Shown in pieces: positions 8,761-20,647 of a DNA stretch of 20,904 nt; within the stretch, counting starts at the first letter, position 1, and each line of letters opens with the position of its first letter. Source of the DNA: Streptomyces megasporus (lineage in GTDB: Bacteria > Actinomycetota > Actinomycetes > Streptomycetales > Streptomycetaceae); contig NZ_JODL01000047.1 in the NCBI RefSeq assembly GCF_000718985.1, forward strand, positions 1 to 20,904, given 5' to 3'. A program made the position numbers and the translations under genes. A model generated the notes under the pieces. That model saw only the letters and a program-made list of their open reading frames with translations, was not told the DNA's origin and searched no databases.

Positions 8761-9657
8761 GTGACGAAGACGAAAACGGCGAACCAGGGCAAAGGTCGGA
8801 ACGTCGGAGGTGAACCGCGGCGGGCCAGGGACGAGGAGGTCGGCCTCGACCACACCCGGATGTGGGTGGAGTTCCCCGACCCGGCGGACGACGAGCAGGT
8901 GTTCCGCTGCGACCTGACGTGGTTGACCTCCCGCTGGGGCTGTGTCTTCGGTCGAGGCTGCCAGGGCGTCCGCGCGGGGCGCGCGAGCGACGGCTGTTGC
9001 ACGCTCGGGGCACACTTCTCCGACGAGGAGGACGAGCAGCGCGTGGCGGCGCACGCGGCACGCCTCACGCCCGAACTCTGGCAGTTCCACGCGGAGGGAA
9101 ACTCCGAGCGCGGCTGGGTCGAGGTGACCGAGGACGGTGAGCGACAGACCCGACGGCACCAGGGCGCGTGCATCTTCCTCAACCGCCCCGGTTTCCCGGC
9201 CGGCTCTGGCTGCGCGCTGCACACGATGGCGCTGCGGGAGGGCCGCGAACCGCTGGAGACCAAGCCGGACGTCTGCTGGCAACTGCCGATCCGGCGGACG
9301 TTCGAGTGGGTGGAGTTGCCGGACGGCGAGCAGAAGCTGTACGTCTCGATCGGCGAGTACGACCGCCGTGGCTGGGGCCCGGGCGGACACGACCTCCACT
9401 GGTGGTGCACCAGCGCTCCGTCCGCCCACCAGGCCGCCGAACCGGTGTACGTCTCGTACCGACCGGAGCTGACGGAGCTGATGGGGCCGGCAGGGTACGA
9501 GCGACTGGCCCGGCTGTGCGAGGAGCGGTTGGCGGCCGGGCCGTCGGTGCCCGCCCCGCACCCGGCGGACAGGCCTCTCCTCCCGATCGTCGACGTCGGC
9601 ACGTCGAGCGCCTCGGCATCGGACCGGCAGGATCGGTCGGACGTTCCCGGTCGATGA
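8761..9657 (+). CDS. Cys-rich protein, DUF3109/YkgJ-like putative metal-binding
   Basis: This is a 298-residue soluble protein with ten cysteines: 50, 61, 67, 79, 80, 137, 151, 172, 216 and 253. The pattern FRCDLT...C-x5-C...[15 protein letters not shown], then CIFLN...GCALH, then [12 protein letters not shown] resembles the zinc/iron-chelating CxxxC-type families (YkgJ, FliB N-methylase domain, DUF3109). That comparison is by eye. As I recall, mycobacteria have a homologue of this size (Rv0495c) beside their ppx gene in the same divergent arrangement, so the association is old. It may coordinate a metal or sense redox state; no catalytic motif is visible. The last 30 residues are Ser/Asp-rich and disordered. 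The GTG start at 8761 is supported by a -10 element 6 bases upstream. Confidence 0.8.
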
Positions 9658-9830: not shown

Positions 9831-9852
9831 ACCCCTGTCCTTCGTCAGGGGT
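9831..9852. terminator. Hairpin between convergent genes
   Basis: ACCCCTG (9831-9837) and CAGGGGT (9846-9852) form a 7-bp stem with an 8-base loop, TCCTTCGT. It lies in the 265-base gap between the Cys-rich gene and the sigma-like/BACON gene, which converge, so a bidirectional terminator is the simplest reading. Its inner sequence also resembles the response-regulator motif described at 18706 (14 of 16 positions on the minus strand). Nothing else in the gap is recognisable. Confidence 0.5.
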
Positions 9853-9922: not shown

Positions 9923-11542
9923 CTAGTCCGCCTCCGCCGGCGGGGTCGTCGGGGTCGGTGAGGACTGGGGCGGCTGGTCGGACGGCTCCGGCGCGCTGGT
10001 GGGAGGCGGGTCGGAGGGCTCCGGCGCCGGGGGGTCGGACGGCCGCGGGTCGGCGGGCACCGGCGCGGTGCCGCGTCCCTGGAGGGTGATCACGGCCTTG
10101 GCCGGGTGGATCGAGATCCGCGCCGTCCACGTGCCGGCGGGTTCCCGCGCCCGGTCCACGGTGACCGTGATCGTGACCGACTCGCCCGGCCGCAGTGTCC
10201 CGTGCGTACGGCTCAGCCGCAGCCAGGGCGCGTCCACGGTGACGGACCACCGAACCGGACGGCTCCCGGAGGCGGCGAGCGTGACGAGCGTGGCGTCCCC
10301 GGCGGGCTGCGCCTCGACCGTCAGCCGTCCCGGGCCCGTGGAATCGTCCTTGCCCGTGCCGTCCTCGCCCGCCTCCTCGGACCCGTCCGGGTCCGGGACG
10401 GACGTCTCCCCGTCCCGACCGTCGGCCACGTCGACGCGGAGGTCGTTCCCGTCGCGGGAGGTGTCGGTGCTCCCGACCCGGCCCTGGTTCCCGTGGATGC
10501 CGTACGGGTCCCCCCGGTCGTTCCGCTCGGCCGCCGAGACCGGGGCGCTGCCCGGACCGGCGTCCACCGGCGGGGCCCCGCGGTACGCCGCCCACAGCGC
10601 GAGCACCGGCGCGGCGACGACCGTCGCCACGACCGTGGTGGTCACCGCGCGGCTGCGCAGCCGGTCGAAGCGTTCGGCGCGGTCCCTGACCCCGACGGGG
10701 AAGCCGCGCCGGTCGAAGCGCGGGGTGTGCCGGGCCCGTGCGCGCAGCGCGGCGAGCATGGCGGCGTGCACCTCCGGGCGCGGCGCCTTCAGCACGGTGA
10801 GCGCTCCGGTGTCCGCGGGCGCGGTGCCGGGCCACGGGCCGCCCGCCAGGACCCGCTCGGCGGTGCGGCGGCACTCGGGGCACTCGTCCACGTGCCGCAC
10901 CAGCTCCCGGCGCAGCGCACTGCCCAGCAGCACCTCCCGATCCCCGGCGAGCCGGGCCACGGCCGCGCAGCCGCCCCGATCCAGGACGGCGAGCGCGGTG
11001 CGGGTGCGCTCCACCTCGCAGGCGCCGCTGGAGAGCAGCAGCTCGGTGCCGTCGTGGTCCAGGCCGAGCACGGCGGCGACCTCGTGGACGGGCAGGTGGT
11101 GGCGCACGGCCAGTTCCAGGGCCTCGCGCTGCTCGGGGCTCGTGCCGGCGGCCTCCGGCCAGGCGAGCGCGGTCAGCTCGCGGCGGCGCGCGGTGGCGAC
11201 GGGGCCGGGGAGCTCGGGAGGCTCGGGGCGGTTCCGCTGTTCGGCGAGGCGCCGCAGGCAGGACCAGCGGGCCAGCGCGTACAGCCAGGCCCGGTGCAGC
11301 GCCGTGTCGCCGGGGGTGCGGCCTCTGCGGCGCTGCCGTTCGGCGACGGCCAGGGCCTCGCCCAGGGCGGTGATGGCCGCCTCGTGCTCGCACATGACGG
11401 ACAGGCAGTACGTGAACAGCCCGTCCAGGTGGTCCAGGTAGGGGCCGAAGCGCACCGGCGGCTGCGCCGCAGCGCGGTGCGTGCCACGGTGCGCCCGGTG
11501 TGCGCCGGTGGGATGCGTGGGGTGCTCGCGCCGAGTGCTCAT
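9923..11542 (-). CDS. Membrane-anchored sigma-factor-like / zinc-finger / BACON-domain protein
   Basis: This is a 539-residue chimera. Residues about 34-100 resemble ECF sigma region 2 (LFTYCLSVM..., HRAWLYALARWSCLRRL), and 122-186 resemble region 4 with its helix-turn-helix (SPEQREALELAVRHHLPVHE, then VAAVLGL). Next come an anti-sigma-type zinc-binding motif H217-x3-C221-x2-C224, a linker, one membrane helix (about 300-320) and an acidic spacer. An Ig-like BACON domain (about 406-491) and a Pro/Ser tail with EPSDPP-like repeats should lie outside the cell. The sigma regions are degenerate, so it may not be an active sigma factor. It resembles ECF groups with C-terminal zinc-finger and membrane extensions. 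The ATG at 11542 directly follows a GTG at 11545 that lies 7 bases after TACGGT (11558-11553); translation may begin at that GTG. Confidence 0.8.
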   Translation of the reverse strand: MSTRREHPTHPTGAHRAHRGTHRAAAQPPVRFGPYLDHLDGLFTYCLSVMCEHEAAITALGEALAVAERQRRRGRTPGDTALHRAWLYALARWSCLRRLAEQRNRPEPPELPGPVATARRRELTALAWPEAAGTSPEQREALELAVRHHLPVHEVAAVLGLDHDGTELLLSSGACEVERTRTALAVLDRGGCAAVARLAGDREVLLGSALRRELVRHVDECPECRRTAERVLAGGPWPGTAPADTGALTVLKAPRPEVHAAMLAALRARARHTPRFDRRGFPVGVRDRAERFDRLRSRAVTTTVVATVVAAPVLALWAAYRGAPPVDAGPGSAPVSAAERNDRGDPYGIHGNQGRVGSTDTSRDGNDLRVDVADGRDGETSVPDPDGSEEAGEDGTGKDDSTGPGRLTVEAQPAGDATLVTLAASGSRPVRWSVTVDAPWLRLSRTHGTLRPGESVTITVTVDRAREPAGTWTARISIHPAKAVITLQGRGTAPVPADPRPSDPPAPEPSDPPPTSAPEPSDQPPQSSPTPTTPPAEAD

Positions 11543-11593
11543 CACCCAGCCGACCGTAGGCGGAAGGCCGACGATCCCTGGCGATGCTTGCGC

Positions 11594-11642
11594 GGGTTTA
11601 ACCCTTACGGGTGACAACTTGCGGGAAAACGCACAAACGCAC
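11594..11642. promoter_or_regulatory. Repeat-rich AT-containing island between two divergent genes
   Basis: The 321-base gap between the sigma-like/BACON gene and radA contains overlapping inverted repeats GGGTTTAACCC (594-604) and ACCCTTACGGGT (601-612 of 11 kb). An exact 8-bp tandem repeat AAACGCAC (11627-11634 and 11635-11642) follows. It is the only AT-containing island in the gap. After it, 11643-11710 is strongly purine-rich on the plus strand. These are possible regulator sites for either gene; no family is recognised. Confidence 0.35.
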
Positions 11643-13276: not shown

Positions 13277-13324
13277 ACTTTGCCCTGGTCTCGCCCGTAC
13301 GTACGCATGACCCGAAGGAGTGCC

Positions 13325-14425
13325 GTGGCAGCCAATGACCGGGCAGCAGCCGGCTCCGACGGCCTGATGCGCGCCTCGCTGAGCGCCGTCGCGCCGGGTA
13401 CCGCCCTGCGCGACGGCCTGGAACGCGTTCTGAGGGGGAACACCGGCGGGCTCATCGTCCTGGGCATGGACAAGACCGTCGAGTCGCTGTGCACCGGCGG
13501 TTTCGTGCTGGACGTGGAGTTCAGCGCGACGCGCCTGCGCGAACTGTGCAAGCTGGACGGCGCGCTGATCCTCGACAAGGACATCACCAAGATCGTACGG
13601 GCGGGCGTCCAGCTCGTTCCGGACGCCTCGATCCCCACGGAGGAGACGGGGACCCGGCACCGCACCGCGCAGCGGGTGTCGATCCAGACCGGTTTCCCGG
13701 TGGTGTCGGTGAGCCAGTCGATGCGGCTGATCGCCCTGTACGTCGACGGCCAGCGGCGGGTGCTGGAGGACTCGGCGGCGATCCTGTCCCGGGCCAACCA
13801 GGCGCTGGCGACGCTGGAGCGGTACAAGCTGCGTCTGGACGAGGTGGCGGGCACGCTCTCCGCGCTGGAGATCGAGGACCTGGTGACCGTCCGCGACGTC
13901 TCCGCGGTCTCACAGCGGCTGGAGATGGTGCGCCGGATCGCCACGGAGATCGCCGAGTACGTGGTGGAGCTGGGCACGGACGGGCGGCTGCTCTCCCTCC
14001 AGCTCGACGAGTTGATCGCGGGCGTGGAGCCGGAGCGCGAGCTGGTCGTCCGCGACTACGTGCCCGAGCCGACCGCGAAGCGGTCCCGCACGGTCGGCGA
14101 GGCGCTGGCCGAGTTGGACCGGCTCTCCCAGACCGAGCTGCTCGACCTGCCCACGGTGGCCCGGGCGTTGGGGTACAGCGGCTCGCCCGAGTCTCTGGAC
14201 TCGGCGGTCTCACCGCGTGGTTACCGCTTGCTGGCGAAGGTGCCGCGGCTGCCGAACGCCGTGATCGAGCGGCTGGTCGAGCACTTCGGCGGGCTGCAGA
14301 AGCTGCTGGCCGCGAGCGTGGACGACCTGCAGACCGTCGACGGCGTCGGCGAGGCGCGGGCCAGGTCGGTCCGTGAGGGCCTGTCGCGGCTGGCGGAGTC
14401 CTCGATCCTGGAGCGGTACGTCTAG
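13325..14425 (+). CDS. disA: DNA integrity scanning diadenylate cyclase DisA
   Basis: DisA condenses two ATP into the second messenger cyclic di-AMP and scans DNA for branched structures. The 366-residue product has the DAC domain (about 25-160) with catalytic DGA (78-80, in [10 protein letters not shown]) and RHR (111-113, in TRHRTAQ). A helical spine follows (about 165-300), and the C-terminal tandem HhH domain that binds DNA junctions includes [20 protein letters not shown] and [12 protein letters not shown]. Length and residues are normal, so it should be active. The GTG start is fixed by GAAGGAG 4 bases upstream. It probably shares the radA transcript; TAGACT at 13274-13279 could be an extra -10 but has no -35. 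In Streptomyces c-di-AMP controls potassium transport and osmotic balance. Confidence 0.97.
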
Positions 14426-14529: not shown

Positions 14530-15402
14530 TCAGTCCTTGGTGAGGACGAACGAGGTGCGCACCTTCTCCTCCAGCCCCTCGATCTCGGCCTCGACCAGAT
14601 AGGTGCCCGCCTTGGCGGTGTCGCGCGGGGTGGCGCACCCGGGGGTGCTGTGGCGGCGGTCCCACTCCAGGGTGTGGACGGCCGTGCCGCCCGCCGGGAC
14701 CCGGTAGAAGGCGGTGCTCCTGCCCTTGGAGCAGTCCTCGGACTTCCAGACCTTCTCGCCCCCGCCCCCGGCCTCGGTGATGGTGAAGACGGTGCCCTCA
14801 CCGCCGAAGTCGACCTTGCAGGCGCCGTCGCCCTCGTTGCGCACGGTCAGCCGGAAGGTGGGCTTCTCTCCGGGCGCGTACCGGTTCTCGACGCTGCGCA
14901 GCGTCACCTCGACCGAGCCGGGACGACAGTTCGGGAGGCCGGAATCGGCCGGCACGGCCTCGGCGCCGCCCGAAACGCCGGTGTCCGCACCACCGTTCGC
15001 GCCCCCGTCCGCGCCGCCCGCGCCGCCGTTCACGGCGCCGCCTCCCTCGCCGTCGGCACCCTCGGAACCTCCTGTGCCGCCCAAGCCACCCGAACCGCCC
15101 GTCGCACCGCCGTCCACGCCGCCGTCCGCACCGCCCGCGCCGCCGCTCACCTCGTCGCGCCCGCCGGGATGTTCGCTGATCAGAGACTCGGAGGAGGAGG
15201 GCCCGGGTGTGATGGTGCTGGGGGCGTGACCGCCGTCCCGCCCGCTGCTCTGGTCGTTTCCGCCGTCACCGCCGGAACTCCCGGACCTGACCGCCCAGAA
15301 GACGAGCAGCCCCAAGACCAACAGGAGCGCAAGCACAACCGCCCTTCGCCGCCAGTAAATGGAGGAAGGAAGGGGTCCAACCGGATGGCGCAGAGATCCC
15401 AC
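14530..15402 (-). CDS. Anchored secreted protein with Gly-rich spacer and Ig-like (BsuPI-like) domain
   Basis: The product is 290 residues and has no assigned function. A short cytoplasmic segment ending in the basic WRRRA is followed by one membrane helix (about 21-39). A Gly/Ala/Asp spacer (about 85-148) contains the duplicated unit GGAGGADGG. A C-terminal beta-rich domain (about 158-288) has four cysteines (159, 195, 224, 256) and ends in AGTYLVEAEIEG...TSFVLTKD. That domain resembles the BsuPI-like/Ig-like fold by strand pattern (YAPGEKPTFRLTVRNEGDG, then VWKSED, then GTYLVEA). It should lie outside the membrane with the spacer crossing the wall. I start at GTG 15402, because TAAGGT ends 6 bases before it; a TTG at 15408 would add two residues (MR). 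Confidence 0.7.
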   Translation of the reverse strand: MGSLRHPVGPLPSSIYWRRRAVVLALLLVLGLLVFWAVRSGSSGGDGGNDQSSGRDGGHAPSTITPGPSSSESLISEHPGGRDEVSGGAGGADGGVDGGATGGSGGLGGTGGSEGADGEGGGAVNGGAGGADGGANGGADTGVSGGAEAVPADSGLPNCRPGSVEVTLRSVENRYAPGEKPTFRLTVRNEGDGACKVDFGGEGTVFTITEAGGGGEKVWKSEDCSKGRSTAFYRVPAGGTAVHTLEWDRRHSTPGCATPRDTAKAGTYLVEAEIEGLEEKVRTSFVLTKD

Positions 15403-15408
15403 GCGCAA

Positions 15409-15414: not shown

Positions 15415-15489
15415 CGAGACATCAAGTACCCAGACGGTCTTACCCGCCGCACAGGTGGTCAACTTTTATGATGAACGGCCTCGCGGGGT

Positions 15490-15556
15490 CTGACGATCGT
15501 CAGGGGCGACACCCGACGATCGCCAGGTGTGACCGCCTCGTCGCCTTCCGTACCGT
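15490..15556 (+). promoter_or_regulatory. PAP2 promoter with two tandem GAC-N4-GTC regulator sites
   Basis: Site 1 is CTGACGATCGTCAG (15490-15503), a perfect 14-bp palindrome. Site 2 is CCGACGATCGCCAGG (15513-15527), which matches 13 of 15 positions of site 1 exactly 23 bp downstream. Site 2 abuts a -35 TGTGAC (15528-15533); a 17-base spacer leads to -10 TACCGT (15551-15556), 6 bases before the PAP2 ATG. This is the layout of an activator-dependent leaderless promoter. The motif is nearly the same as the one upstream of the histidine kinase gene at 18706. Confidence 0.65.
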
Positions 15557-15562
15557 TCACGC

Positions 15563-16168
15563 ATGAGCAGTGATCTTCACAGCGGTCTCCACGACGACCT
15601 TTATCGCGACGTCACCGATTTCGCGCACGACACTCCCGGTTGGGTGCACGCCCTCGCCGAGTACGGCACCGAGGGCGGAATCCTGATTCTCCTCGCGCTC
15701 CTCGCCGCGGCGTGCTGGCGGGTCCGGCGCGCCCGGGCGCGAACGTTCGCACGGGCTCTGCTCGGCCCGGTGGGGGTGGCGGTGGCGTACGGCGTCAGCG
15801 AGACCGTCAAGTTGCTCGTGCGGGAGGAGCGGCCGTGCAGGACCGTGGTGGGCGCGGCGGTTCCCATCGCGCCCTGCCCGGAGTCGGGCGACTGGTCCTT
15901 CCCCAGCAATCACGCCACCATCGCCCTCGGTTCGGCGGTGGCCGTCGTGCTCGCCTGGCGGGCGATGGCCTGGGTGGTGCTGCCCCTGGCGATACTGACG
16001 GCGTTCTCACGGGTGTTCATCGGCGTGCACTACCCGCACGACGTGGTGGCGGGCGCGGTGTTGGGCACGGTCGTGGTGTTGTCGGTGACGTGGGTGGCGA
16101 CGCGACCGGCGGCCGTGTTGGCGGACCGGGTGCGCGCGCGGCTGGGTCACACCAGCCCTGCCTCGTAG
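15563..16168 (+). CDS. PAP2-family membrane phosphatase (possible undecaprenyl-pyrophosphate phosphatase)
   Basis: This is a 201-residue membrane phosphatase. The three PAP2 motifs are complete: K83-x6-R90-P91 (KLLVREERP), PSNH (114-117, a variant of PSGH) and SR-x5-H-x3-D (S149 R150, H156, D160 in SRVFIGVHYPHD). About five membrane segments surround them. Enzymes of this size include BcrC-type undecaprenyl-pyrophosphate phosphatases, which recycle the cell-wall lipid carrier and give bacitracin resistance; phosphatidic-acid or other lipid phosphates are alternatives. The ATG at 15563 has no ribosome site and appears leaderless. The 3' end overlaps the convergent response-regulator gene by 22 bases. 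The promoter sites suggest control by that regulator. Confidence 0.9.
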   Translation: MSSDLHSGLHDDLYRDVTDFAHDTPGWVHALAEYGTEGGILILLALLAAACWRVRRARARTFARALLGPVGVAVAYGVSETVKLLVREERPCRTVVGAAVPIAPCPESGDWSFPSNHATIALGSAVAVVLAWRAMAWVVLPLAILTAFSRVFIGVHYPHDVVAGAVLGTVVVLSVTWVATRPAAVLADRVRARLGHTSPAS

Positions 16169-16839
16169 GCGACGATCGCCGCCTGGACTCGGTTGCCGAC
16201 CTCCAACCGGTCCAGGATGGCGCTCACATAGCCCTTCACGGTGCCCTCGGTGAGGTGCAGACGCCTCGCGATCTCCGCGTTGGAACATCCCTCTCCGACG
16301 AGGGCGAGGACTTGGCGTTCGCGGCTGGTGAGTGCCTCGGTGCGCGCTCGGGCAGCCGCGCCACGTGCCATACGGTGAGCGCCCAACTCGCTGATGACGT
16401 GCCGGGCGACCTTCGGGGAGAGGAAGGCGCCGCCGTCGGCCGCGGCCCGCACGCCGGAGAGCAGCTCGTGCGGATCACCGGACTTCAACAGGAAACCACT
16501 GGCGCCGCCACCGAGCGCGCGAGTGATGTAGGCGTCTTCGGAGAAGGTGGTCAGGATGACGACGGCGGTGTCCGGAACGGCCCGTACGATCTGCTCACCG
16601 GCGGCCAGCCCGTCCAGGCGTGGCATGCGGATGTCGAGCAGGGCCACGTCCGGCCGGTGGGCGCGGGCGAGTTCGACGGCCTCGCGTCCGTCGTCGGCCT
16701 CCGCGACCACCTCGATCCCGGAATCCGCGGAGAGGATGGCCCGCACCCCGGCGCGGATCATCGCCTCGTCGTCGGCAAGCAGTACGCGGATCGCCCCGGC
16801 TCCCGCCGTCCCCGTTTTCCCCGCCTCATCCCCCGTCAC
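16147..16839 (-). CDS. NarL/LuxR-family two-component response regulator
   Basis: This is a 230-residue response regulator. The receiver domain (about 16-132) has the acidic pair D23-D24, phospho-acceptor D69 in VALLDIRMP, T97 and K119 (FLLKSG). A linker leads to a LuxR-type helix-turn-helix (about 168-228: LTSRERQVLALVGEGCSNAE, then GTVKGYVSAIL). The GTG start at 16839 is set by GGAGGGAGAG just upstream and lies inside the end of the kinase gene (14-base overlap), so translation is coupled. The frame is open further upstream, but that part is the kinase tail in another frame. NarL-family regulators bind short inverted repeats as dimers, which fits the GAC-N4-GTC sites near both neighbouring genes. 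The gene end overlaps the PAP2 gene by 22 bases. Confidence 0.94.
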   Translation of the reverse strand: MTGDEAGKTGTAGAGAIRVLLADDEAMIRAGVRAILSADSGIEVVAEADDGREAVELARAHRPDVALLDIRMPRLDGLAAGEQIVRAVPDTAVVILTTFSEDAYITRALGGGASGFLLKSGDPHELLSGVRAAADGGAFLSPKVARHVISELGAHRMARGAAARARTEALTSRERQVLALVGEGCSNAEIARRLHLTEGTVKGYVSAILDRLEVGNRVQAAIVAYEAGLV

Positions 16840-18691
16840 TTCGCTCTCCCTCCACGGTGCTTCCGTCATCCCCGGTTCCGCCGCTTTCCCGTTCGACGCT
16901 TTCTCGTTCGGCGCCTCGTTCGGCGTCGCCTCGAAGGCCGTCATCCCGACCTCCGTTCCCCCTGTTCTCGTGGCCCTGGCTCTCGTCGTTCCGGCCCTCG
17001 CCACCGGGCTCTCCCCCCATCGGCACGATGGTCTTCTCGATCAGACGGTCGTCGGCGAAGCACAGCCGGTAGGTCGCCACACTGGTGAACAATTCGCCGC
17101 TGGTCCGGTAGTACTCGCAGCGGGCTCCGGGCGGAGGGGCGGGCGCACGGTCGACCGGCGGGTCGAAGATCGCCCGATCGGGCAGGCCGCGCCGAACATC
17201 GGTCTCCACGTCGCCGACGCGCAACCGCTCGTACGTCGCGCGGGGCAGTACGGAGTGGGTGGTGGTGTAGGCGTACCAACCGAGGACGGCCGACACCACG
17301 GTGATCGCGGCGCCGCCCGCCGCCATGGACGTCCTCAGCATCCAACGCCGTCCCACCCGCTGCTGCTGGACGAGCCGGAGGGCCGCGATGTCGATCTCCT
17401 CCGCCCCCGCTCCCAGCGTGACTCCCCGTACGTCGAGCCCCCGCGCACCGGCCCCGGCCCGGTTCCCGGCCGTGTACGGCAGCCTGGCCCGGACTTCGAA
17501 CCCGCCGTCCGGCCGCTTGCCCGCGGTGAACCTCCCGCCGACCAGCCGCACCCGCTCCCGCAGGGCGGCCAACCCGCTGCCGCACCCCGGGGCGGACCGG
17601 TGGCCAAAGGCGCCCCGGGGACCCCGGGCGCCGTCCGGTGCCTCCGGTGGCGGTGGCTCGTTGACGACGGTCACCGTGGCCGCGTCCGGGCCGCGCTCGA
17701 CGGCCACGGTGACGGCGGCTCCGGGGGCGTGCTTGGCCACGTTGGTCAGCGCCTCCTGCACCACCCGATGGGCTGCCCGCTCCACCGGCTCCGGCAGTCC
17801 TCCGGTGTCCTCGACCGCCGACCGCACCCGCAGTCCGGAGCCGGCCGCCCGCTCCACCAAGGCGGCGATCGACTCCCCGACCGGGGCCAGCGGGGCCTGC
17901 CCGGCCCCGTCCCGCCGGCTCCGGTCACGCCCTCCGAAGGGGCCATCGTCGCGCAGGACGCCGATGATCTCGCGCAGCCGTTCGGTCGCGTCGGACGCGG
18001 CGGCGCGCACCTCCCCCGCCGCCGCACGGTGCTCCTCGGCCAATCCCGGTGTCACCTGCAGCGCCCCGGCACGCAGCGCGATCAGGCTCAACTCGTGGCC
18101 GAGCGCGTCGTGCATGTCCTCGGCGATCCGGGCACGCTCGCGCAGCCGGGCCCGCTCGGCCACCATCGTCCGCTCGCGCTCCAACTGCGCCGCGCGATCC
18201 AGCAGGGCGCGCACCAGGGCCCGGTCCTGACGGCGGTAGCGGCCCGCGAGCCACGGGAAGACGGAGCCGAAGAGCAAGGTCCCGACGAGGACGAGCCACA
18301 CCATGACCGGATCGGGTGCCCTCAACGGAACCAGGGCCGTCCCGACCGCGGCGACCGCGGCGAAGGCCCGCAGCGCGCTCCGCGTCCGCTCCGCCCTGAA
18401 CCCCAGCACGGCGGCGAAACCCGCCAGCGCCGGCCCGTAGGAGAGGGTGAACAGCCCCGGCGAGGCGGCCAGCGAGAGCCCCGCGGCCAACAGCCAGCTC
18501 ACCACCGGGCGGGTACGGGCCAGGGCCACCGCCACGGCCAGCACCGCCGGCCCGCCCATCGTCCACCACCACTCCACGGGGCCGGTGCGGCCGTACCGGT
18601 CGCCCAGCGCCACGGGAACGCAGACCACCGCCCACGCCAGGGTGCCGCGTACGGCGGTACGTACTCTCACCCTCGCGACGCTACCGGCCAT
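16826..18691 (-). CDS. Histidine kinase with C-terminal membrane-anchored BamE-like domain
   Basis: This is a 621-residue kinase of the HisKA_3 (NarL-partner) type. About five N-terminal membrane segments (to residue 150) precede a coiled coil, the phospho-acceptor box EDMHDALGHEL with His194, and the HATPase domain with N317 (VVQEALTNVAKHA) and GSGLAALRERV (371-381). Unusually, the protein continues. After a linker comes another membrane helix (about 455-476) and then an outside domain (about 480-556: YERLRVGDVETDVRRGLPD..., CEYYR..., YRLCFADDRLIEKTI). It resembles SmpA/BamE-like modules and has two cysteines (525, 544) that could form a disulfide. A charged low-complexity tail of about 60 residues ends the protein. 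The ATG at 18691 has a poor ribosome site; GTG 18670 lies 7 bases after TAGCGT and may be the true, leaderless start (614 residues). Confidence 0.92.
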   Translation of the reverse strand: MAGSVARVRVRTAVRGTLAWAVVCVPVALGDRYGRTGPVEWWWTMGGPAVLAVAVALARTRPVVSWLLAAGLSLAASPGLFTLSYGPALAGFAAVLGFRAERTRSALRAFAAVAAVGTALVPLRAPDPVMVWLVLVGTLLFGSVFPWLAGRYRRQDRALVRALLDRAAQLERERTMVAERARLRERARIAEDMHDALGHELSLIALRAGALQVTPGLAEEHRAAAGEVRAAASDATERLREIIGVLRDDGPFGGRDRSRRDGAGQAPLAPVGESIAALVERAAGSGLRVRSAVEDTGGLPEPVERAAHRVVQEALTNVAKHAPGAAVTVAVERGPDAATVTVVNEPPPPEAPDGARGPRGAFGHRSAPGCGSGLAALRERVRLVGGRFTAGKRPDGGFEVRARLPYTAGNRAGAGARGLDVRGVTLGAGAEEIDIAALRLVQQQRVGRRWMLRTSMAAGGAAITVVSAVLGWYAYTTTHSVLPRATYERLRVGDVETDVRRGLPDRAIFDPPVDRAPAPPPGARCEYYRTSGELFTSVATYRLCFADDRLIEKTIVPMGGEPGGEGRNDESQGHENRGNGGRDDGLRGDAERGAERESVERESGGTGDDGSTVEGERSDGG

Positions 18692-18721
18692 CCGTGTTCC
18701 ACGCCCCTGACGAAAGTCAGG
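18678..18721 (-). promoter_or_regulatory. Kinase operon promoter with GAC-N4-GTC regulator site
   Basis: CCTGACGAAAGTCAGG (18706-18721) is an inverted repeat with 6-bp arms and a 4-base centre. It matches 13 of 16 positions of the PAP2 site 1 region (15489-15504). Downstream on the minus strand TAGCGT (18683-18678) fits a -10, 22 bases from the site edge (23 in the PAP2 promoter) and 7 bases before GTG 18670. The position fits autoregulation by the response regulator of the operon. Confidence 0.55.
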
Positions 18722-18854: not shown

Positions 18855-19817
18855 ATGACTGCGACCACATCCGAGCACAGCGCCACCGGTCTCCATACGA
18901 CCGATCCCCGTCCCCCCGAGTCCCCCGCCCCCACCGACCTCCACGCCCCCGTCATCGAGTGGTTCGATCGACACGCCCGTGACCTGCCCTGGCGCCGCCC
19001 CGAGGCGGGTGCCTGGGGGGTCATGGTCAGTGAGTTCATGCTCCAGCAGACGCCCGTCAACCGGGTGCTGCCCGTCTACGAGCAGTGGCTCGCCCGCTGG
19101 CCCCGTCCCGCCGACCTGGCCGCCGAGCCGCCCGGCGAGGCCGTGCGCGCCTGGGGGCGGCTGGGCTACCCGCGCCGAGCCCTGCGCCTCCACGGCGCCG
19201 CCGCCGCCATAACGGAACGGCACGGCGGCGACGTGCCCCGCGAGCACGCCCAGCTCCTCGCGCTGCCGGGCGTGGGCGAGTACACGGCCGCGGCCGTGGC
19301 CTCCTTCGCCTACGGGCAGCGGCACGCGGTGCTGGACACCAACGTCCGGCGCGTCTTCGCCCGCGCCTTCGGCGGACGGGAGTTCCCGCCGACCGCCACC
19401 ACCGCCGCCGAGCGCAGGCTCGCCCGGGCCGTCCTGCCGGAGGACGACGCGACGGCGGCACGCTGGGCCGCGGCGACGATGGAGCTGGGCGCCCTGGTGT
19501 GCACGGCCCGACGGCCGGATTGCGCGCGCTGTCCGATCGCGGACCTGTGCGCCTGGCGCCGAGCGGGCTCCCCCGCGCACGACGGTCCGCCGCGCCGCGG
19601 CCAGAGTTACGCGGGCACCGACCGCCAGGTGCGCGGCAGGCTGCTGGCCGTCCTGCGGGAGGCGGTGGAACCGGTGCCCCAGTCCGTCCTGGACGAGGTG
19701 TGGGACGAGCCGGTGCAGCGGGCCCGCGCACTGGACGGGCTGGTGGCGGACGGGCTGGTGGAGCCGTTGGAGGGCGGCGTCTACCGGCTGCCCCAGAGCC
19801 GGCCCCGGGGCATGTGA
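18855..19817 (+). CDS. mutY: A/G-specific adenine DNA glycosylase
   Basis: MutY removes adenine mispaired with 8-oxoguanine and so prevents G:C to T:A mutations. The 320-residue product has catalytic Glu60 in SEFMLQQT (59-66), the helix-hairpin-helix LPGVGEYTA (137-145), catalytic Asp161 in AVLDTNVRRV, and the four iron-sulfur cysteines C216-x6-C223-x2-C226-x5-C232. A short winged-helix-like C-terminus (about 258-315) replaces the NUDIX-like 8-oxoG-reading domain found in E. coli MutY, as in other actinobacterial forms. Residues 1-28 are a Pro/Thr-rich extension. The ATG has GGAAG 4 bases upstream. The gene is divergent from the kinase gene and ends in a strong hairpin. Confidence 0.95.
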   Translation: MTATTSEHSATGLHTTDPRPPESPAPTDLHAPVIEWFDRHARDLPWRRPEAGAWGVMVSEFMLQQTPVNRVLPVYEQWLARWPRPADLAAEPPGEAVRAWGRLGYPRRALRLHGAAAAITERHGGDVPREHAQLLALPGVGEYTAAAVASFAYGQRHAVLDTNVRRVFARAFGGREFPPTATTAAERRLARAVLPEDDATAARWAAATMELGALVCTARRPDCARCPIADLCAWRRAGSPAHDGPPRRGQSYAGTDRQVRGRLLAVLREAVEPVPQSVLDEVWDEPVQRARALDGLVADGLVEPLEGGVYRLPQSRPRGM

Positions 19818-20044: not shown

Positions 20045-20647
20045 ATGACCACCACGGCGACGGAACCACGGGCGACGGCACCGCGGACGCCGGAACCACG
20101 GACGCCGGAACCACGAGAACTGGACTTCGAGGAGTACGTCCGCACCCGGCAGGACGCCCTGCTGCGCACCGCGCGCCGCCTCGTCGCCGACCCGCTGGAC
20201 GCCCAGGACCTGCTCCAGACCGCCCTGGCCCGCACCTACGGCCACTGGGACGCCATCGCGGACAAGTCGCTGGCGGACGCCTACCTGCGCCGTGTGATGC
20301 TCAACACCCGCACCCAGTGGTGGCGCTCCCGACGGCTGAACGAGATCCCCACCGAGACGCCGCCGGACGTGGTCGGCGTGGACGACGGCTTCGAACAGTA
20401 CGCCGACCGCTCCCTGCTCCTCGACATACTGGGCACGCTGGCGCCCAAACAGCGCAGCGTGGTCGTCCTGCGTCACTGGGAGCAGTTGGACACCCAGGAG
20501 ACGGCGGCGACGCTGGGCATGTCACCGGGTACGGTCAAGAGCACTCTGCACCGTGCGCTGGCACGGTTGCGCGAGGAACTGGACGAACGCACCCGCCGGG
20601 AGCGCGGGGAAGGTGACGTGGGGATGGCGAACAGACGGTGCCGTTGA
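20045..20647 (+). CDS. sigE: ECF sigma factor SigE (envelope stress)
   Basis: SigE is the ECF sigma factor that directs cell-envelope stress genes in Streptomyces, switched on by the CseB/CseC two-component system rather than by an anti-sigma factor. The 200-residue product has region 2 (about 30-100: EEYVRTRQDALLRTARRL, DAQDLLQTALARTYGHWD, LRRVMLNTRTQWWRSRR) and region 4 (about 126-180: LAPKQRSVVVLRHWEQLDTQ, ETAATLGMSPGTVKSTLHRA). These blocks match S. coelicolor SigE closely from memory. The ATG at 20045 has GGGAGG 5 bases upstream; a GTG at 20027 would include that site. Compared with the 176-residue S. coelicolor protein it has about 22 extra N-terminal residues, TEPRATAPRTPEPRTPEPRE-like, made by a 15-bp tandem repeat. 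The stop overlaps the next gene by 10 bases. Confidence 0.94.
   Translation: MTTTATEPRATAPRTPEPRTPEPRELDFEEYVRTRQDALLRTARRLVADPLDAQDLLQTALARTYGHWDAIADKSLADAYLRRVMLNTRTQWWRSRRLNEIPTETPPDVVGVDDGFEQYADRSLLLDILGTLAPKQRSVVVLRHWEQLDTQETAATLGMSPGTVKSTLHRALARLREELDERTRRERGEGDVGMANRRCR
20086..20115 (+). repeat. 15-bp tandem repeat inside sigE
   Basis: GACGCCGGAACCACG occurs twice in exact tandem (20086-20100, 20101-20115), with a degenerate third copy at 20056-20070. It keeps the reading frame and encodes the TPEPR units of the N-terminal extension of SigE. Copy number could vary between strains. Confidence 0.8.

What the first reader, a model, noticed from the sequence alone, without database searches (positions are those of the whole stretch)
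15490..18721. Candidate self-contained envelope-stress circuit: two-component system, PAP2 phosphatase and shared GAC-N4-GTC sites
Near-identical inverted repeats lie upstream of the kinase gene (CCTGACGAAAGTCAGG, 18706-18721) and the PAP2 gene (TCTGACGATCGTCAGG, 15489-15504, with a second copy 23 bp downstream). The distance from the promoter-proximal site edge to the -10 is 22 and 23 bases. The two genes flank the response-regulator gene, which encodes a NarL-type DNA-binding domain suited to such dyads. The simplest reading is that the regulator activates its own operon and a lipid-carrier-type phosphatase, next to sigE. The sites are seen; the regulatory link and the phosphatase substrate are inferred.
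Basis: partly seen in the sequence, partly recalled or inferred. Interest (0 to 1): 0.75.

Follow-up and report, generated by a model that had tools for sequence, protein, structure and literature searches.

The report
Sensor-regulator circuit controlling a lipid phosphatase
Next to a known cell-wall stress operon, many Streptomyces carry a sensor kinase and DNA-binding regulator that very probably switch on only themselves and a neighbouring membrane-lipid phosphatase, through palindromic DNA sites kept at a fixed distance from both promoters.

Summary
Observation confirmed; central inference well supported. The short dyad core alone is unremarkable; its geometry is not. Of 26 genomes with this gene order, 21 of 22 testable ones have a dyad 22-23 bases upstream of the kinase -10. 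In 23 of 26 a tandem pair, 23 or 24 bases apart, precedes PAP2, again 22-23 bases from the -10. In 21 whole genomes a stricter motif, built from these promoters, occurs 116 times; 29 sites lie within 5 kb of PAP2 (0.14 expected). Where the two-component system lies elsewhere, 15 of 16 genomes keep a recognisable PAP2 pair, some degenerate; where absent, 4 of 28 do (not significant after tree correction). The neighbour is the true sigE-cse operon. The kinase has a conserved C-terminal membrane helix and extracytoplasmic domain with two invariant cysteines and a modest BamE/BLIP-like fold match. Binding, activation, signal and substrate are inferred. Verdict: a real, apparently closed two-promoter regulon; new variant of a known kind.

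The parts
15489..15504 (+). PAP2 operator, distal dyad TCTGACGATCGTCAGG
   Evidence: tandem pair conserved in 23 of 26 syntenic genomes
15512..15527 (+). PAP2 operator, proximal dyad CCCGACGATCGCCAGG, 23 bases on; 23 bases from the -10
   Evidence: spacing to the -10 is 23 in 22 of 26 and 22 in 1
15551..15556 (+). PAP2 -10 TACCGT, 6 bases before the ATG (leaderless)
   Evidence: sequence; TACCGT/TACGGT-type hexamers in relatives
15563..16168 (+). PAP2-family membrane phosphatase, 201 aa, catalytic motifs KX6RP, PSNH and SRX5HX3D intact
   Evidence: PF01569 E 2.3e-19; best NCBIfam models are undecaprenyl-diphosphatases, below cut-off; motifs
16147..16869 (-). NarL/VraR-type response regulator (receiver + LuxR/GerE HTH); start uncertain, frame open to 17004
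16826..18670 (-). Sensor histidine kinase, 614 aa from GTG 18670 (621 aa if ATG 18691): about six N-terminal membrane helices, HisKA_3 + HATPase, C-terminal membrane helix and extracytoplasmic domain
17270..17326 (-). C-terminal transmembrane helix of the kinase
   Evidence: hydropathy peak; conserved in alignment A2
17021..17257 (-). C-terminal extracytoplasmic BamE/BLIP-like domain with two invariant cysteines
18678..18683 (-). Kinase operon -10 TAGCGT, 7 bases before GTG 18670 (leaderless)
   Evidence: sequence; such a hexamer 22-23 bases from the dyad in 21 of 22 testable syntenic genomes, window included
18706..18721 (-). Kinase-regulator operator, single perfect-arm dyad CCTGACTTTCGTCAGG
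20045..20647 (+). sigE (ECF sigma factor; context, not shown to be a target)
   Evidence: TIGR02983 187.6 bits against cut-off 141.55; cseB and cseC follow it in relatives

Best explanation
A NarL-type two-component system forms a small closed feedback circuit. The kinase senses a state of the membrane or wall, probably through its C-terminal extracytoplasmic domain, and phosphorylates the regulator. The regulator dimer binds CTGNC-NNN-CGNCAG dyads centred near -43 of two leaderless promoters: one dyad at the kinase-regulator operon, two dyads 23 bases apart at PAP2. It recruits RNA polymerase to promoters that have a -10 but no good -35. The product is more of the system itself and more of a BcrC-type PAP2 phosphatase, most likely acting on undecaprenyl pyrophosphate. 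Shown by sequence comparison: sites, geometry, conservation, rarity and association with the system. Inferred: binding, direction of control, signal and substrate.
For: Kinase-promoter dyad with 22-23-base spacing in 21 of 22 testable syntenic genomes (22 in 4, 23 in 17). PAP2 tandem dyads in 23 of 26, with 22-23-base spacing to the -10 in the same 23. The kinase-to-mutY gap, from extrapolated starts, varies from 34 to 881 bases, so the spacing belongs to the kinase promoter. In 21 genomes, 29 of 116 strict-motif sites lie within 5 kb of PAP2 (0.14 expected); 20 of 21 genomes have one. With the system elsewhere in the genome, 15 of 16 keep a recognisable PAP2 pair (z > 3; 10 of 16 at z > 5); without it, 4 of 28 (2 of 28 at z > 5). 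In 7 of 16 such genomes an ACTTTCGKC-type dyad also lies near the kinase start. Eight of 14 non-syntenic PAP2-system modules have a dyad of 13 bits or more upstream of PAP2.
Against: No binding or expression data. After tree correction only 6 independent pairs remain (about 3.7 agree, 0.3 oppose, 2 do not differ; median sign-test p 0.25). Four genomes without the system keep a pair (L079, L089, L082, L063), and one with it has none (L080); seven with it (L071, L072, L077, L078, L081, L083, L084) keep only degenerate pairs of 8.6-11.2 bits, against 33-51 in the 23 class A genomes. L035 and L059 lack the usual PAP2 pair and L042 has it only weakly; L059 also lacks the kinase dyad. Eight relocated systems (L122, L123, L126, L131-L135) show no ACTTTCGKC dyad. 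The strict motif was built from the promoters whose neighbourhood it then scores, and the 80 slices are the 80 best PAP2 scorers, not a random sample. PAP2 falls below NCBIfam cut-offs for every named phosphatase it matched.
Confidence: 0.72

Rival explanations
1. The regulator binds the same dyads but represses: it lies over the -35 of both promoters and is released on signal, so the system is an autorepressed brake.
For: A dyad spanning about -51 to -36 could occlude polymerase; the sequence data do not give a sign.
Against: The distance to the -10 is fixed at 22-23, and by inspection no -35 hexamer lies between dyad and -10 in the window; both are typical of an activator that replaces the -35. 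Tandem upstream sites at PAP2 also suit activation (recalled knowledge of NarL-family regulators).
Confidence: 0.13
2. Another regulator reads the dyads: CseB or sigma-E next door, or a different NarL-type regulator such as the paralogues found.
For: Four genomes keep a pair without the system. Paralogous systems carry related CGACTTTCGTCG / GCGACGAAAG dyads, and a 60% paralogue has CCTGCCTTTCGTCAGG upstream (L185).
Against: Dyad presence follows the NarL-type system in cis or trans, whereas disA-mutY-sigE synteny is present with and without the dyads. CseB matches PhoB, OmpR and MtrA models, a class that usually binds direct repeats (recalled).
Confidence: 0.12
3. The dyads are RNA hairpins or terminators, or chance palindromes of a GAC/GTC-rich genome.
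For: CCCCTGAC/GTCAGGGG arms could form a stem; one copy (9834-9849) lies between convergent genes, where a terminator would be expected. The core motif is common genome-wide.
Against: Both sites lie between divergent genes and upstream of apparently leaderless start points, so neither downstream gene would transcribe them. Position and spacing are conserved across species.
Confidence: 0.03

Closest known systems
LiaRS / VraSR-type NarL-family envelope-stress systems (Firmicutes; AbrB1/B2 of S. coelicolor is called a homologue in PMC9739842, passages)
   Same: Regulator closest in PDB to VraR (E 6.4e-43); DesK/VraS-type kinase core; autoregulation predicted.
   Different: Kinase scores 19.6 against a cut-off of 450 for LiaS; no LiaF match among the seven window proteins scanned; the target is a PAP2 phosphatase; extra C-terminal sensor-like domain.
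BcrC/UppP recycling of the undecaprenyl carrier (B. subtilis)
   Same: PAP2 family with intact motifs; a stress-linked phosphatase gene. In B. subtilis BcrC is an undecaprenyl pyrophosphate phosphatase and bcrC is regulated by two ECF sigma factors (titles in the reference list of PMC3123327; PMC5723303 seen only in the search listing and start of abstract).
   Different: Here control is predicted to run through a dedicated two-component system with fixed operators; substrate not shown.
sigma-E/CseABC envelope stress response of S. coelicolor (PMC6767563, passages read)
   Same: Chromosomal neighbour, with mutY between.
   Different: CseBC is a separate two-component system. The passages read say sigE transcription depends completely on CseBC, and name only VanRS, CseBC and sigma-E as shown envelope-stress players in S. 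coelicolor at that date.
BamE / beta-lactamase-inhibitor-protein (BLIP) fold
   Different: Attached to the C-terminal end of a histidine kinase, outside the membrane; sequence similarity below thresholds.

Membership tests
NarL/FixJ-type two-component system | Receiver domain + GerE HTH regulator; HisKA_3 + HATPase kinase | tested here: met
   PF00072, PF00196, PF07730 and PF02518 above gathering scores; H-box and receiver motifs present
LiaFSR / VraTSR | Kinase passes the LiaS equivalog cut-off | tested here: not met
   NF052531 19.6 bits against 450
LiaFSR / VraTSR | LiaF/VraT-type membrane protein beside the system | tested here: not met
   neighbouring products scanned are PAP2, MutY, SigE, DisA and one protein without any match
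Undecaprenyl-diphosphatase of the BcrC/PAP2 type | PAP2 fold family with KX6RP, PSGH-like and SRX5HX3D motifs | tested here: met
   PF01569 69.9 bits against 27.2; motifs
Undecaprenyl-diphosphatase of the BcrC/PAP2 type | Passes a curated equivalog model (SepP NF047884 or PRK11837) | tested here: not met
   60.4 against 250 and 59.2 against 229; hence 'works like', not 'is'
Undecaprenyl-diphosphatase of the BcrC/PAP2 type | Hydrolyses undecaprenyl pyrophosphate | not testable with these tools
   needs an enzyme assay
Streptomyces sigE-cse locus (neighbour) | SigE-family ECF sigma factor followed by CseB and CseC equivalogs | tested here: met
   sigma gene in the window; CseB 384.7 against 350 and CseC 790.5 against 700 in L053, CseB also in L045 and L061; the window's contig ends before cse
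BamE/BLIP fold (kinase C-terminal domain) | Pfam BamE match | tested here: not met
   2 of 36 rows, best E 0.14
BamE/BLIP fold (kinase C-terminal domain) | Same three-dimensional fold | tested here: inconclusive

The most novel reading that the evidence does not exclude
The kinase is the type of a family whose sensor is a C-terminal extracytoplasmic BamE/BLIP-fold domain with a conserved cysteine pair, placed after the ATPase domain and a last membrane helix. It reads the outer-leaflet state of the lipid-carrier cycle and controls nothing but its own synthesis and one carrier phosphatase: a dedicated homeostat for lipid-carrier recycling, running in parallel with sigma-E.
Probability: 0.33. 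Interest if true: 0.68.

Novelty: new variant of a known kind. Interest (0 to 1): 0.52.

Why it matters
Streptomyces make and meet many antibiotics that attack the lipid II cycle. The 2011 S. [quoted passage not shown] A two-promoter regulon with exact operators, next to sigE-cse, gives a concrete regulator-target pair to test and a possible reporter for carrier stress. The C-terminal extracytoplasmic domain, if it senses, would be an unusual kinase architecture.

Tried and rejected
The generic dyad TGAC-N4-GTCA as a genome-wide regulon marker was rejected: 124 sites in the genome, and the 2-mismatch 16-mer was no commoner than its reversed control (478 against 460).

Further targets: I opened 12 loci around other strict-motif sites, 2 from the own genome and 10 from relatives. 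Six sites (L221-L225, L231) lie inside frames that passed my coding filter. Four more (L187, L226, L227, L228) lie in longer frames whose codon G+C looks coding by eye. L230 looks intergenic and L188 is unclear. The site that recurs in three related genomes (L221-L223) lies inside a frame whose product looks to me like oligoribonuclease (recognised by eye, not tested). The other far-off sites, about 75 of 87, were not opened. In the 26 syntenic slices only three sites of 15 bits or more lay away from the two promoters: L035 2776, L055 7745 and window 9834; the L049 site that the script calls 'other' is its kinase promoter, mis-labelled because only part of that kinase was aligned.

The dyad at window 9834-9849 was considered as a third target and set aside: it lies between convergent 3' ends.

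A LiaFSR or MadRS identity was rejected on curated cut-offs. Sequence searches of the C-terminal domain against PDB and Pfam gave nothing significant; the whole-kinase fold search showed only kinase cores.

Tree-corrected test: the association of dyad and system is not significant with 6 independent pairs. In that test 67 of 70 rows were used, and dyad labels were set by hand (all class A rows except L035 and L059 counted as having it; class B rows with z above 3). The z values come from 40 single-base shuffles of each upstream region.

Upstream of the regulator gene in the relocated systems the PAP2-site matrix gave no convincing dyad (15 loci L165-L179, best score 10.3 bits).

Literature: the searches listed no paper that, by title and start of abstract, describes this system. 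The library holds only open-licence PMC papers.

The regex for the regulator's HTH matched only some rows and was not used further.
Full report
WHAT IS THERE. The window is a contig of a Streptomyces-type genome (named relatives). Order: radA, disA (13280-14425 +), an unmatched G-rich protein with an N-terminal hydrophobic stretch (14530-15408 -), PAP2 (15563-16168 +), response regulator (16147-16869 -), kinase (16826-18670 -), mutY (18855-19817 +), sigE (20045-20647 +). Both -10 elements end 6-7 bases before a start codon, so both messages should be leaderless. That favours GTG 18670 as the kinase start; the database copy also has 614 residues.

CHANCE. The short core is not special in the window, and it is common in the genome (124 copies). 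A loose 16-mer is as common as its reversed control (478 against 460). The finding stands on the flanked motif, its position and its conservation.

CONSERVATION. A search of 199 genomes of the genus with the PAP2 protein matched 198. I took slices around the best hit of the 80 best-scoring genomes besides the own one, plus four of the five loci of named species; lower-scoring genomes were not examined. This gave three classes. Class A is the window's order with the system between PAP2 and mutY (26 including the window). Class B is the same order without the system there (44). Class C is PAP2 with a related regulator outside this order (14; for one, L036, the contig is too short to tell). One locus (L038) had no PAP2. 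At the kinase, 20 of 22 testable class A genomes have a TGAC/TTAC-type dyad 22 (4) or 23 (16) bases from a TAGCGT-like -10 (the script looked for the hexamer only at 13-24 bases). L066 has a dyad that the regex missed, 23 bases from TAGGTT. L059 has none. L054, L056, L060 and L087 could not be tested because the aligned kinase does not reach its start. At PAP2, 23 of 26 have the tandem pair, 23 bases apart in 19 and 24 in 4, and in the same 23 the proximal copy lies 23 (22 genomes) or 22 (1 genome) bases from the -10. Exceptions: L035 (a dyad displaced far upstream), L059 and L042. Dyad columns of the kinase promoters hold 1.4 bits each on average against 0.3 in the spacer and 0.2 upstream; the rows were chosen by a dyad regex, so this contrast is partly built in. 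The kinase-to-mutY gap, from extrapolated starts, varies from 34 to 881 bases, so the fixed distance belongs to the kinase promoter.

RARITY. CTGNCKWWCGNCAGG has 4 distinct sites in the own genome: these two promoters and two others. Over the own genome and 20 of the other 25 class A genomes (about 182 Mb) there are 116 sites. Of these, 29 lie within 5 kb of PAP2, against 0.14 for uniform scatter, and 20 of 21 genomes have at least one. In the 20 relatives, strand-wise, 131 hits compare with 111 for the reversed pattern; by my count 34 of the 131 are at this locus, leaving 97. So there is no sign of a wider regulon at this stringency. The pattern was derived from these promoters, so the test shows closure of the regulon rather than an independent proof of conservation.

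TRANS TEST. If the regulator acts on PAP2, the dyads should stay when the system moves and decay when it is lost. In class B, 16 of 44 genomes carry the orthologous system elsewhere: regulator 68-73% identical in 15, and G049 by kinase alone. Five further genomes carry only a more distant regulator (62-65%, the class C kind) and were counted as lacking the orthologue. A recognisable tandem pair (z above 3) is kept in 15 of 16 with the system and in 4 of 28 without (Fisher 2e-7; Mann-Whitney 3e-6). At z above 5 it is 10 of 16 against 2 of 28. Seven of the 15 are degenerate (8.6-11.2 bits, left arm changed or second copy poor). On a tree of 67 of 70 genomes only 6 independent contrasts exist on well-supported branches; they lean the predicted way (3.7 to 0.3) but are not significant. 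The four exceptions without the system (L079, L063, L082, L089) sit inside or beside clades that have it, as recent losses would.

RELATED SYSTEMS. In 7 of the 16 relocated systems (L120, L121, L124, L127, L128, L129, L175) an ACTTTCGKC-type dyad lies near the kinase start; in 8 (L122, L123, L126, L131-L135) it does not; L125 runs off its contig. Eight of 14 class C loci have a dyad of 13 bits or more 70-290 bases upstream of the PAP2 match. More distant paralogues use CGACTTTCGTCG-type dyads. The operator type thus appears to belong to this regulator family.

TARGET. PAP2 has the complete catalytic motif set. Its best-scoring curated models are undecaprenyl-diphosphatases SepP and PRK11837, both far below cut-off. 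BcrC-like carrier recycling is the likeliest role, not a shown one.

NEIGHBOUR. In the class A relatives checked, the sigma gene is followed by CseB (L053, L045, L061) and CseC (L053, the only one tested for it); a frame between sigE and cseB in L053 matched no model. So it is the sigE of the sigma-E response described in PMC6767563 (passages). No dyad of 15 bits or more lies at sigE in the 22 class A slices that include it (the window counted), so the two responses look parallel rather than hierarchical.

VERDICT. Real and well supported as a closed autoregulatory circuit with one effector; ordinary in its parts, unusual in its closure and in the kinase tail.

Noticed in passing
window 9834-9849: CCTGTCCTTCGTCAGG, a strong match (25.1 bits) to the PAP2-site matrix, lies between the 3' ends of convergent ORFs (8761-9657 + and a BACON-domain gene 9923-11617 -); none of 14 other class A slices that reach 2 kb upstream of radA showed a site of 15 bits or more there.
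   Followed up: partly
window 17021-17326 (kinase C-terminal end): Conserved C-terminal membrane helix plus extracytoplasmic BamE/BLIP-like domain with two invariant cysteines; no Pfam match for the window's copy.
   Followed up: yes
L139-L149 (for example L142, L143, L146): Some paralogous systems have CGACTTTCGTCG ... GCGACGAAAG palindromes upstream of the kinase, suggesting a family of related operators.
   Followed up: partly
window 14530-15408: G/A-rich protein with an N-terminal hydrophobic stretch, divergent from PAP2, with no Pfam or NCBIfam match, found beside PAP2 in the class A and B slices; it shares the PAP2 operator region and might be co-regulated.
   Followed up: no
L079, L063, L082, L089: Genomes that keep a PAP2 dyad pair without a detectable orthologous system: recent losses or capture by another regulator.
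   Followed up: partly
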